From: Pleurocapsales cyanobacterium LEGE 06147
Lineage (GTDB): Bacteria; Cyanobacteriota; Cyanobacteriia; Cyanobacteriales; Xenococcaceae
Direction of reading: 5' to 3'
DNA: 60,384 bases
Assembly (NCBI GenBank): GCA_015207585.1
Contig: JADEWQ010000022.1
Location: 1 to 60,384 of the forward strand
Shown here piece after piece: positions 17,748 through 59,576 of this stretch. Positions within the stretch are counted from its first letter, which is position 1. The number at the start of each line of letters is the position of its first letter. The position numbers and the translations under genes were made by a program. The notes below the pieces were generated by a model. The model saw only the letters and a list, made by a program, of their open reading frames with translations. It was not told where the DNA came from and ran no database searches.

Positions 17748-18980
17748 ATGTACGCACTCAAGAGGAAGTTAAAGTTAAACAACAAAGAGAAGACCCTAAT
17801 GGCTAAACACGCAGGGTTCTCTCGCTTTGTTTATAACTATGGACTTTCTCTATTCTGGGATTCTCTGGACTGTAAAGCTTCAGACAGTAAAAGAATTAGT
17901 GCTATCAAAAAGTGCTTAACTAATGTAACTAAGAAGAAGTCCGAGTATGCTTGGATTGGTGAGCTATCATCTAGGGTTTATCAGAATTCATTCCAGACTC
18001 TAACAACAGCATTTAAGCGTTGGAGAAAAGGGTTAGCGGATAAACCCACACCAAAGTTGAAGAAGCATAGGCAATCTTTCACTGTTGATAGTTCTAATGG
18101 TAAGGTCTTAGTTAGAGAAGGTAAACACATAAAGATACCCACTCTGGGTACTTTTAGGCTTCAAGAACCACTTAAAGAAAGTTATATCTCTCAGACCTTC
18201 ACGATTAGTTGCACTGCTGGAGAGTGGTATGTATCTTTTGCTGTTGATGCAGAAAGAATATCTCCTATCGTTCATGAAATTTACGGTAAAACAGGCATTG
18301 ATTTAGGGGTGTCTTGTTTTGCTACTCTCTCTGACGGTACGGAAATTCTAGCTCCTAAGCCATCTAAACAAGCGAAAACCAAGCTGGCTAAAACTCAATA
18401 TAGTGCTAGAAATAAACAACTAGGCAAGAGAAAGTTAGGTGTTAAAGCATCTAACAATGCCAAGAAATACTTTCAGAGAGTAGCTAAATTGCATGCCAAG
18501 GTGTCTAACCAGAGAAAAGACTTTCTGCAACAGACTACTACTAATCTACTTCGCAAATATCACACGCTAAGGATTGAAGACTTAAATGTAAAAGGGATGA
18601 TAGCTAACCGTAAGTTATCCTCTGCTGTTAGCGATTTAGGCTTTTATGAATTTCGTAACCTATTAAATCAAAAGGTTAATTGGTATGCTGGTTTTGTCGA
18701 GGTAGTAGATAGATGGTACCCGAGTAGTAAACTTTGCAGAAAGTGTAATTCAAAACATACGGGACTAAAACTAAAAGATAGATTATTTGTATGCCCTAGT
18801 TGCGGGCACACCGAAGCAAGGGACTTACAGGCGGCTATCAATTTAGCTAATGCTTCTGAAGAATGTATAACAACTAGGGTAGGTTCTATCCGAAGTAAGG
18901 ACACTGCGTTGGCGGGTTCCCCGATTAAGCTGCGTGTCCGGTACGCTTGTGGACATGATGCCGCCGACGGTCATGGTTGA
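17748..18980 (+). mobile_element. tnpB: IS605/IS1341-type RNA-guided nuclease TnpB (intact)
   Basis: 410 residues. HTH-like N-terminus (residues 1-40), then the WED-like middle, then RuvC motifs GIDLGVSC (D185), RIEDLNV (E277) and EARDLQAAIN (D359), plus a zinc finger CRKC...CPSC (C330, C333, C349, C352). All catalytic residues are present, so the protein should be an active omega-RNA-guided DNA nuclease. No TnpA Y1 transposase is in the window, so movement would need one in trans. The guide RNA (omega/reRNA) is expected from the 3' end of the ORF and the sequence after it. The element interrupts the fermentation cluster between transketolase and uspA. Confidence 0.85.
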
Positions 18981-29221: not shown

Positions 29222-29374
29222 AAATCTCAACTTGTCGACTCAAAAGCTTGCGCTGGCAAAATTTAGTTTTGTTAAGCTCATCCCCTTTTCTTAGCGCGCT
29301 CTCTGCAAGCGTCCTTTGTCCTTTAAAAGCTAAGAGCTATTCTAATGATCAATAACCAAGTTTAGACAGTTTTG

Positions 29375-29725
29375 TTAATCTTCATATTTAACCGCTGTAC
29401 CACTGACAGCAACCATCAACATATTTCCGCCATCGCCTATACCAATAGTTTCGTAGTCAATATCTACGGCAATAATGGCATTTGCGCCCAAGGTTTGCGC
29501 TTGTTCGATCATCTCGCGTAGGGCAGTATCTTTTGCTTCGCGTAACGATCTTTCATAAGTAGCAGAACGTCCGCCCACAACATCGCGGATACTGGCAAAA
29601 AAATCTCTAAAGATATTTGCCCCCAAAATGGCTTCCCCACTGACAATGCCATAATGCTCGATAATTTTTTTATCTCCTATATGAGGAGCTGTTGACACAA
29701 TTATGCAATCGCTCTTTTTTCTCAT
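29375..29725 (-). CDS. YbjQ/UPF0145-family protein
   Basis: 116 residues. The typical pattern of the family is clear: IVSTAP start, [65 protein letters not shown] and MVAVSGTAV. These are pentameric, putative heavy-metal-binding proteins of unknown function. It is located just downstream (on the same strand) of the omega-RNA-like element. The start could be at the ATG 29725 or later at a shorter form; conservation starts at about residue 8. Confidence 0.85.
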
Positions 29726-29746
29726 TCCTTATCGTTTATTCGTTCA

Positions 29747-30050
29747 GTGACGTACTACTGGGCTAAAGCCACAGTAGCTTCCTCTTTCATCTAGAAATGC
29801 CCGCTAACCGAAATTAGCTCATGGTCTTACTTCCTATCCGCAGGTTTGGCTATAAGCCCTGTACTGGCGCGAAGCTTTAGCTTCACCGAGGCTGCAGTCC
29901 CTCCGCCCGAAGGACTATATCTTTTGCGACTTCCACCTTGTCCATTGGATTTACACACCAAGAGGGTCAGAGGGTTTCAGTTTCCTAGGCTGCGGAGTGG
30001 TCTCTAAGTCCGTTTCCTCTAGCCCTAGCGGGTCAGCGACCATTTCACAC
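29747..30050 (-). ncRNA. probable HEARO/IscB-type omega RNA, standalone
   Basis: A non-coding block on the minus strand with many short hairpins. Near the 5' end is GGTCGCTGACCCGCTAGGG; in the middle AAAGATATAGTCCTTCGGG, then GAAGCTAAAGCTTC (about 29876-29889), GCTAA-TTTCG-GTTAGC (about 29802-29818) and, at the 3' end, CTACTG-tGGCTttAGCCc-AGTAG (about 29754-29780). The order and wording fit my memory of the HEARO RNA class (the omega RNA of IscB), about 300 bases. No IscB ORF follows; the YbjQ-like gene does. The guide would lie at the 5' end (about 30050-30070). I cannot run Infernal. A self-splicing intron fragment is an alternative. Confidence 0.5.
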
Positions 30051-30101
30051 TATACAACAAACAAACACTTTATTTTATGAAGATTCGGTGACTCGCTCTC
30101 A

Positions 30102-30126
30102 TCCCGTCGCCTAAAGGCAAGACGGG
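30102..30126. repeat. TCCCGTC...GACGGGA hairpin
   Basis: TCCCGTC-GCCTAAAGGC-A-GACGGGA, a nested inverted repeat just upstream (minus strand) of the omega-RNA-like element. It could be part of the mobile element or an independent repeat. Confidence 0.5.
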
Positions 30127-30235
30127 AATTCCCGCTCACACTCTTTAAACCTTTGGTATAAGTAGAAAAAGATCTTTTTTCTTTTATCCTTTTCCTTTTT
30201 TTGATAAAAACTTAAGAATTTTGCAAGAGGCAACT

Positions 30236-30322
30236 ATGAGCATTAAGCTCACAATCAAGGATTTAACTTTCAAAACAGTTTTATTAGGTATTAAGGCATT
30301 TCTAAATTTGATAGGCAAATAA
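30236..30322 (+). CDS. putative 28-residue small protein
   Basis: MSIKLTIKDLTFKTVLLGIK, then AFLNLIGK. AGAGG is 6-11 bases before the ATG, a convincing ribosome site in an otherwise empty 300-base stretch. The peptide is Lys-rich and hydrophobic, able to form an amphipathic or membrane-associated helix. No family recognised; chance ORF possible. Confidence 0.35.
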   Translation: MSIKLTIKDLTFKTVLLGIKAFLNLIGK

Positions 30323-30368
30323 TTAGCAGTGATGGGCATTATATTGCCCACCCCGCATTTAGTTTGTC

Positions 30369-30887
30369 TCAGGCTTGCTCGGCGATCGCCTCTGGAGAAA
30401 TGCCTCGACGGGAAAGAACTTCTTGCAATTGTGTTTCTTTATCCTTAGTCAGGGAAGTCCGCAGTATTTTACCGCCATAGGGAGCAACTTCTTCTAACAC
30501 CTTATCTGGTGTAACTTGACGTACCAGAATGAAGAGAGCAGAAGTTCCTGGTTGTAAGGTTTCTCCCAATTCTCGCATGAAGTCATCGTCAACCCCAATA
30601 TCACTCAAGGCTCCACCAATAGCACCGGTAGCAGCACCAACTGCAGCACCAAATAAAGGCACGAAAAACAAGGTTCCAATTAGTAATCCCCAAAATCCGC
30701 CGCTAACGGCTCCAGCTCCCGTCAAGTTGACGGCTTGCTTGAGTTGAACTTTGCCTTCTTGGTTTTTGACCACCACGGCGGCATCTTCTAGTTCGATTAG
30801 GTGTTCTTTTTGCAGTTTGGCTAAAGTCAGGCGGACTTCTTCTGCTTTGAATTGGTCATCGTAAGCGATCGCAATTAAGTCACTCAT
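30369..30887 (-). CDS. DUF1269-family membrane-associated protein
   Basis: 172 residues. N-terminal ferredoxin-like segment (residues 1-45, MSDLIAIAYDDQFKAEEVRLTLAKLQKEHLIELEDAAVVVK), a Gly/Ala-rich hydrophobic middle (about 55-95, GAGAVSGGFWGLLIGTLFFVPLFGAAVGAATGAIGGALSD) that can cross or sit in the membrane, then a second alpha/beta part (LGETLQPGTSALFILVRQ...KVLEEVAPYGGKILRTSL). This is the DUF1269 family, function unknown. Transcribed in the same direction as xfp, 60 bases downstream. Confidence 0.85.
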   Translation of the reverse strand: MSDLIAIAYDDQFKAEEVRLTLAKLQKEHLIELEDAAVVVKNQEGKVQLKQAVNLTGAGAVSGGFWGLLIGTLFFVPLFGAAVGAATGAIGGALSDIGVDDDFMRELGETLQPGTSALFILVRQVTPDKVLEEVAPYGGKILRTSLTKDKETQLQEVLSRRGISPEAIAEQA

Positions 30888-58793: not shown

Positions 58794-59576
58794 TTATAAT
58801 GGATTAACCATTAAAGGCTGAACGGCACAGCTCATTAGCCCTTCGAGCGTAAATGCTTCTAGAGCATACTTTCTTATAATTTGCAAACTTCCATTAATGT
58901 CTGCGTTCAGTAATACACCACTAGTAGTCTTAAACAAACCAGGCTTAATTCTTTTGCCTAAATAACTAGATTGCTTTACAGGTGGCTCTAAGTCTAAAGC
59001 CGAGGTTTTAGAAGTATAAGACTCGTTAATTGTTATTACTTTAATTCCTACTAGCTGGCATTTATACGTAATCTTCTCGATTAACTTAGCTTGTGGTATC
59101 TGTGTGAAAGATTGATTATTTCTTTTACCTAGATTCACTTTCTGCTTCCAGTTATTGTTCTTACCTATGACTAAGGTATTAATACCTTTAGCTATTAGTG
59201 TATTGATAATTAATCTACTAACTTTACGTAAGCAATTCTCCATTATTTGATTGCGTTTATAGGTTAGTAATTGTATCTTCTTGCTAGTCTTTTGTTCACC
59301 TTTAAGCAAAGACTGTAGCTTGGCTTTTCTCTTGTTGTAATAATGATTAATCGCCTTTAGTTTCCTTCCGTTAATCAGCATAGGTCTAAAACCAGGCTGA
59401 TTTGATGTTAAAGCTACTAGGTTATTAATCCCAAGGTCAATACCAGCTATGAAAGTTTCAGGTAAATTAGGCTGTTCCTCCTTCTCATAAATAATCTCTA
59501 TGACATAAGCAGAAGAAGTAGGAACTATTTGTAGCAGCCAGCAATAAGAAACCCTCCGACCAGCAATAAAGTTCAT
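58794..59576 (-). mobile_element. TnpB-like protein with altered RuvC site, 5'-truncated
   Basis: 260 residues. RuvC-I GIDLGINNLV (D47) and RuvC-III NADINGSLQI (D226) are present, but the usual RuvC-II Glu position reads IGKNNNWKQ (about 137-145) and no CxxC zinc finger is found. A Glu occurs 40 residues later in INESYTSKTS (E185), which may be the relocated acid seen in rearranged TnpB groups. The first 15 or so residues (MNFIAGRRVSYCWLL) do not fit, and the N-terminal HTH and WED regions are missing. Most likely a decayed IS1341-like element inserted in mscS; whether it still binds RNA is open. Confidence 0.7.

What the first reader, a model, noticed from the sequence alone, without database searches (positions are those of the whole stretch)
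29747..30050. Standalone HEARO/IscB-like omega RNA without IscB
The minus strand has the compact series of hairpins, the ends and the internal blocks I associate with HEARO RNAs (RNA partner of IscB). No IscB gene is adjacent; the next gene encodes YbjQ. Isolated copies of these RNAs guided by IscB in trans are known in genomes with many copies. If so, the 16 or so bases 5' of the RNA on the minus strand (about 30051-30070) would be the guide and could reveal a genomic target.
Basis: partly seen in the sequence, partly recalled or inferred. Interest (0 to 1): 0.7.

Follow-up and report, generated by a model that had tools for sequence, protein, structure and literature searches.

The report
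Standalone TnpB guide RNA, not HEARO
This is a small, apparently mobile DNA element in a cyanobacterium that has no protein gene but carries an RNA of the kind that guides TnpB, the ancestor of CRISPR-Cas12 scissors, so it probably depends on TnpB made elsewhere in the same genome.

Summary
A structured RNA is really there, but it is not HEARO. Rfam finds no HEARO in the window or genome, although the model hits 38 of 244 cyanobacterial genomes. Nine standalone relatives give a covarying fold. A covariance model built from them finds 21 places in this genome; nine of the 21 lie directly behind TnpB genes or fragments. So the core (29923-29747, minus strand) is a TnpB-type right-end guide RNA. 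It lies in an inferred 397-bp element (30143-29747) without tnpB, whose left end matches three TnpB elements here at 94-96%. The guide would be 3' of the RNA (29746 onward, into the ybjQ leader), not 5' as proposed. TnpB-less relatives move: two copies here are 99.7% identical with unrelated flanks. The complete extra-hairpin insert occurs in 24 of 44 standalone, 4 of 4 contig-edge and 0 of 15 TnpB-linked copies, though one linked copy is near the threshold. Most likely a guide-only IS200/IS605-type hitchhiker. Transcription and TnpB binding are untested; a promoter scan found no sigma-70-like site.

The parts
29747..30143 (-). Inferred whole TnpB-less IS200/IS605-type element, 397 bp
   Evidence: Right end fixed by the conserved GTACGTCAC end of relatives. 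Left boundary inferred from TTTAAA in front of the left-end hairpin, as at the C70 TnpB element and similar motifs in 11 of 28 copies examined (no chance control). No clean empty site was found.
30144..30149 (-). Putative target / transposon-associated motif TTTAAA
   Evidence: Direct reading; same letters before the C70 TnpB left end. Inference, not tested.
30093..30140 (-). Left-end hairpin region
   Evidence: 94-96% identical over 48 bp to sequence on C164, C231 and C70 that lies 90 nt in front of a TnpB match. Also scored as a terminator-like site at 30135-30122 (1 found, 0.4 expected).
29924..30050 (-).
   Evidence: No fold above shuffles (30045-29919, z +1.05). Weakly shared with one other copy, L049 (72% over 54 positions, E 6e-4); no other match better than E 0.06 in 60 genomes.
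29747..29923 (-). Core of the TnpB-type right-end guide RNA (reRNA / omega RNA), with two extra hairpins
   Evidence: Model R1 hit, 173 bits (a training sequence of that model); covariation; same model hits the 3' ends of TnpB genes.
29747..29780 (-). Right-end hairpin and terminal GTACGTCAC
   Evidence: Helix 7 of the consensus, 3 of 5 pairs with changes on both sides.
29727..29746 (-). Predicted guide, TGAACGAATAAACGATAAGG
   Evidence: By analogy with ISDra2 reRNA, whose last ~16 nt come from the flank (PMC8612924, passages). Only its own locus matches in this genome at up to 3 mismatches; 0 exact matches in viral contigs.
29375..29725 (-). ybjQ gene, its ATG 22 nt behind the right end, same orientation
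   Evidence: ORF, Pfam YbjQ_1, distance.

Best explanation
A non-autonomous IS200/IS605-type element that has no tnpB but keeps an enlarged TnpB guide RNA. Shown here: the core RNA is related to the right-end RNA behind TnpB genes of the same genome, the left end matches TnpB elements, and TnpB-less relatives move. Inferred: the RNA is transcribed through the right end into the flank and is bound in trans by a TnpB made elsewhere in the genome; its last 16-20 nt guide cleavage of the emptied site (TTTAAA followed by TGAACG...). After TnpA excises the element from one copy, that cut would lead to repair from the occupied copy and so restore the element. The element would use TnpA and TnpB made by others.
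For: R1, trained only on 9 standalone copies, hits 21 places in this genome; 9 of 21 lie behind TnpB genes or fragments by tblastn, 8 of them 9-20 nt behind TnpB profile matches. The TnpB-linked alignments shown run end to end except for 55 positions. Left end 94-96% identical to three TnpB left ends. Own-genome TnpB-less copies on C222 and C4 are 99.7% identical over 378 bp with unrelated flanks (28.0 and 23.8% versus 9.6-40.9% for 8 random pairs). The genome has an open TnpB frame on C70 with a right-end RNA of this family (32 bits), and 14 TnpA matches, some fragmentary. Restoration of the donor site by TnpB is proposed for ISDra2 (PMC8612924, passages).
Against: No transcript, binding or cleavage was tested. 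The promoter scan of 29600-30300 found no sigma-70-like site (0 found, 0.8 expected). The 5' part does not fold above chance. The window copy itself has no demonstrated empty site: G011 has ybjQ without the element but its upstream DNA does not align. The core is divergent from the TnpB-linked RNAs (24-60 bits for non-training hits below the long copies, against 173 for the window), so a resident TnpB need not accept it.
Confidence: 0.7

Rival explanations
1. Deletion relic: an ordinary TnpB element that lost its gene, moved or stranded by TnpA in trans, with a right end that no longer works as a guide RNA (an ordinary PATE).
For: PATEs from IS605-type elements by core deletion are described (PMC3119063, passages), and one PATE-like element in Halanaerobium keeps 28 nt of left end, the last 58 nt of tnpB and all 160 nt of right end (PMC7290912, passages). 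The tree of core RNAs interleaves standalone and TnpB-linked copies with weak support, so repeated loss is possible. No promoter-like site.
Against: The fold is kept with many compensatory changes across divergent standalone copies, and the complete insert is found in standalone but not in TnpB-linked copies (24 of 44 against 0 of 15), which a simple deletion does not give.
Confidence: 0.22
2. Domesticated regulator: the guide RNA directs a TnpB or a nuclease-dead TnpB-like protein to regulate a gene (TldR-like), for instance ybjQ.
For: The element lies 22 nt in front of ybjQ in the same orientation; 8 of 29 oriented loci, the window included, list a same-strand ORF of at least 85 aa starting 22-96 nt behind the right end (the right end was misplaced there for 5 loci and re-placed). 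TldR proteins are described as RNA-guided transcription factors (PMC13418256, abstract in search listing).
Against: The guide has no second match in the genome. At the occupied site TTTAAA and the guide-matching DNA are separated by the element. Guides differ between insertion sites. Orientation is not uniform: genes read towards the element behind L050, L109, L117 and L127. No control for gene orientation was made.
Confidence: 0.05
3. HEARO / IscB omega RNA acting in trans.
For: A superficial likeness of the 5' letters (by eye).
Against: No HEARO at cut-off in the window, none at E<=10 in 29300-30400, none in the genome, none in 8 related loci at E<=1; positive control in 38 of 244 genomes; the core matches TnpB 3' ends instead.
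Confidence: 0.02

Closest known systems
TnpB right-end element RNA (reRNA / omega RNA) of IS200/IS605 elements
   Same: Homologous core, right-end hairpin at the 3' end, flank sequence as presumed guide.
   Different: No tnpB upstream, two extra hairpins, a non-coding 5' part in place of the tnpB 3' end.
PATE (palindrome-associated transposable element)
   Same: Short IS605-type element without protein gene, near-terminal hairpins, presumably moved by TnpA in trans (PMC7290912, PMC3119063, passages).
   Different: Carries a conserved, covarying guide RNA with a domain not seen complete in TnpB-linked copies. The PATE-like element of PMC7290912 also keeps the right end, but the passages seen do not treat it as a guide RNA.
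HEARO (RF02033) and standalone IscB omega RNAs
   Same: The idea of a standalone guide RNA used in trans (IscB case recalled, not read here).
   Different: No match to the Rfam model; guide expected on the 3' side instead of the 5' side.
TldR, RNA-guided regulators derived from TnpB
   Same: TnpB-type guide RNA near genes.
   Different: No TldR-like partner gene beside the RNA and no target other than its own flank found.

Membership tests
TnpB right-end guide RNA | Homology to the RNA at the 3' end of tnpB plus right end | tested here: met
   R1 from standalone copies hits 9 of 21 own-genome places behind TnpB; end-to-end alignments apart from 55 positions.
TnpB right-end guide RNA | Compensatory conservation of the fold | tested here: met
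   21 of 38 pairs with changes on both sides, 0 of 500 shuffles.
TnpB right-end guide RNA | Overlaps the 3' end of a tnpB gene | tested here: not met
   No TnpB within 1.5 kb; so it is called TnpB-type, standalone.
TnpB right-end guide RNA | Bound by TnpB and guides DNA cleavage | not testable with these tools
   Needs biochemistry.
PATE / non-autonomous IS200/IS605 element | Near-terminal hairpins like those of TnpB elements, no protein gene | tested here: met
   Left end 94-96% to three TnpB elements; right end shared with TnpB-linked RNAs; no TnpB.
PATE / non-autonomous IS200/IS605 element | Mobile, inserted behind a fixed short target | tested here: inconclusive
   Relatives mobile; TTTA-type motif in front of 11 of 28 copies, two of which (L112, L119) share one site; no clean empty site for the window copy.
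HEARO (RF02033) | Match to the covariance model | tested here: not met
   positive control.
HEARO (RF02033) | iscB directly downstream or elsewhere in the genome | tested here: not met
   8 weak IscB matches, none over cut-off; one, C219, covers profile positions 3-118 and may be a fragment.
TldR-type regulation | Guide matching a host promoter elsewhere | tested here: not met
   Only the own locus matches at up to 3 mismatches over 20 nt; shorter guides not tested.

The most novel reading that the evidence does not exclude
A specialised class of guide-only transposons: protein-free IS200/IS605 elements whose guide RNA has gained domains seen complete only in copies without TnpB, and which live as parasites of, or competitors for, TnpB proteins made elsewhere in the cell.
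Probability: 0.35. Interest if true: 0.75.

Novelty: new variant of a known kind. Interest (0 to 1): 0.5.

Why it matters
If the RNA works in trans, the selfish unit of the TnpB world can be the guide RNA alone. That would help explain how TnpA-dependent miniature elements persist and would offer an enlarged natural TnpB scaffold to test. It also corrects a label: the likeness to HEARO disappears under test.

Tried and rejected
HEARO: rejected. Group I intron: AAGATATAGTCC in the window recalls (from memory) a P7 strand, but in relatives this stretch pairs locally with compensatory changes (helix 1), and Rfam gave no group I match across the core. The four Rfam matches at E 0.32-6.3 lie outside the core and are far below their cut-offs. 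A shared 5' part: the window's resembles only L049 (54 positions, E 6e-4), and nothing better than E 0.06 in 60 genomes. The other type of 5' part, shared by several copies, gave a consensus fold of only 6 pairs, 3 with double changes, so I claim no structure there. Own promoter: a -10-like box was seen by eye, but the scan found none. A single origin of insert-bearing copies: the tree of 60 distinct rows (3 identical of 63 dropped) over 130 columns is interleaved and weak. An empty site: G011 has ybjQ without the element, but its upstream sequence does not align. Plasmids: no match. Viral contigs: no exact guide match. Literature: searches listed no paper that, by title and abstract start, treats standalone TnpB guide RNAs of cyanobacteria; the library lacks many subscription papers and preprints, so this is weak evidence. 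I saw passages only of PMC7290912, PMC8612924, PMC10711439 and PMC3119063.

Limits of the counts. One search lists 109 matches in 44 of 386 genomes, with at most 6 candidates scored per genome. I aligned 63 loci: 30 (window included), 20 more of this genome, 7, and 6 fetched by place. Linked or standalone was decided by tblastn with 13 TnpB proteins of this genome, so divergent TnpBs in other genomes could be missed; ORF lists were inspected by eye for 29 loci only. The insert was called from letters at 6 or more of 8 helix-3 pairs: TnpB-linked L078 has 5 of 8 and L079 1 of 8, the other 13 linked copies none; standalone L069, L070 are incomplete in helix 5. The model was trained on insert-bearing standalone copies and favours them. 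L125 was left out because the strand check was ambiguous. For L045, L047, L048, L049 and L051 the right end was misplaced and re-placed.

Full report
WHAT IS THERE. On the minus strand a 177-nt stretch (29923-29747) folds better than shuffles (z -2.19, 5 of 200 as good). DNA search finds matches in 6 of 100 genomes, this one included. Nine copies, the window among them, were aligned and folded. 93.5% of cells pair, 21 of 38 pairs have changes on both sides, and 0 of 500 shuffles reach any of the five measures; sliding the partners drops pairing to 37-44%. The fold has a long hairpin, a multibranched domain closed by CCUC/GAGG, and the right-end hairpin followed by GTACGTCAC.

NOT HEARO. Rfam at its curated cut-offs finds nothing in the window. 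The permissive search of 29300-30400 at E<=10 lists four weak matches, none HEARO. Eight related loci give none at E<=1. The genome has none. Because no control genome rang, I searched 244 cyanobacterial genomes: 38 have a match, 30 over the cut-off, the window's genome none. IscB: eight weak matches, none over cut-off; three of these loci carry group II introns.

IT IS A TnpB-TYPE RIGHT-END RNA. A covariance model from the nine standalone copies (R1) finds 21 places in this genome. Eight start 9-20 nt behind the end of a TnpB profile match on the same strand (C76, C217, C16, C238, C70, C215, C142, C230); a ninth (C200) reads the end of TnpB at a contig edge; all nine count as linked by tblastn. 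The other 12 have no TnpB; one, C113, reads by eye like the tail of a tnpB gene. The two TnpB-linked alignments printed (C76, C217) run from end to end except for 55 positions. The left end agrees: 48 bp at 30093-30140 match at 94-96% the sequence 90 nt in front of TnpB on C164, C231 and C70. The C70 element has TTTAAA in front of its left end, as the window copy has (30149-30144). ISDra2 TnpB copurifies with an RNA of about 150 nt from the 3' end of tnpB and the right end, whose last ~16 nt come from the flank (PMC8612924, passages). By that rule the guide here is 3' of 29747.

STANDALONE AND MOBILE RELATIVES. No TnpB lies within 1.5 kb of the window copy; the TnpB matches in the window are at 17766-18851 and 58869-59525. 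Of 63 aligned loci, 15 are TnpB-linked, 44 standalone, and 4 too close to a contig edge (limits in Tried and rejected). Two standalone copies in this genome (C222, C4) are 99.7% identical over 378 bp with unrelated flanks, a third (C218) is 96.6-96.8% identical to them; in another genus four copies of 439-448 bp from three genomes are 92-96% identical at different places, two of them in one genome. In 11 of 28 copies TTTAAC, TTTAAA or TTTATC stands in front of the left-end hairpin (judged by eye, no chance control). The genome has 14 TnpA matches, some with stops or short, and a 400-codon open TnpB frame on C70 with OrfB_IS605 and TNB domains.

WHAT IS UNUSUAL. The complete insert of helices 3-5 (threshold 6 of 8 helix-3 pairs) is in 24 of 44 standalone and 4 of 4 edge copies, but in 0 of 15 TnpB-linked copies; 13 of these 15 have no letters there, L078 has 5 of 8 and L079 1 of 8. 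The training set favours insert-bearing copies, but a TnpB-linked copy with the insert should have scored higher, not lower. The tree does not tell whether the insert arose once. I read this as an RNA form adapted to life without its own gene; that step is inference, and L078 shows that the line is not sharp.

HOW IT MOST LIKELY WORKS. Inferred: transcription through the right end, binding by a resident TnpB, and guiding to the emptied site TTTAAA-TGAACGAATAAACG, so that repair restores the element. The guide occurs only once in the genome (up to 3 mismatches), as expected if its target is its own empty site, but also if it has no function. Against transcription from an own promoter: no sigma-70-like site in 29600-30300. 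Not shown: transcription, binding, cleavage.

CONTEXT. The ATG of ybjQ is 22 nt behind the right end, same orientation, so a read-through transcript would cover the ybjQ leader. G011 of the same family has ybjQ without the element. Three relatives found by pattern are Xenococcaceae MAGs.

VERDICT. The HEARO reading is rejected; the idea of a standalone guide RNA survives in another family. New variant of a known kind: a PATE-like element with a TnpB-type guide RNA.

Noticed in passing
L071 (G183:C92), upstream of the RNA: A TnpB-less copy seems to carry a small antisense gene at its left end, similar by eye to the one in front of the window's TnpB at 17748.
   Followed up: no
window 17748-18980 (+) and 58869-59525 (-): Two TnpB matches in the window itself; neither has a right-end RNA found by R1.
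   Followed up: partly
L053 848-1108 (-), G000:C171: A group I intron (RF00028, 68 bits) elsewhere in this genome.
   Followed up: no
L044 (G014:C113) 1501-1534: A relative shares 34 bp of the window element's left part at 88% but has a different, R1-negative body by eye; perhaps another TnpB-less element.
   Followed up: no
G000:C219:47713-48069: A possible IscB N-terminal fragment (profile positions 3-118, 54.5 bits, below cut-off) in a genome without HEARO.
   Followed up: no
G000, whole genome: 114 TnpB profile matches, many fragments or with stops, against 14 TnpA matches.
   Followed up: no
L101, L103, L104 (G000:C218, C222, C4): A second family of short TnpB-less guide RNA elements without the extra hairpins, nearly identical at three sites.
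   Followed up: partly
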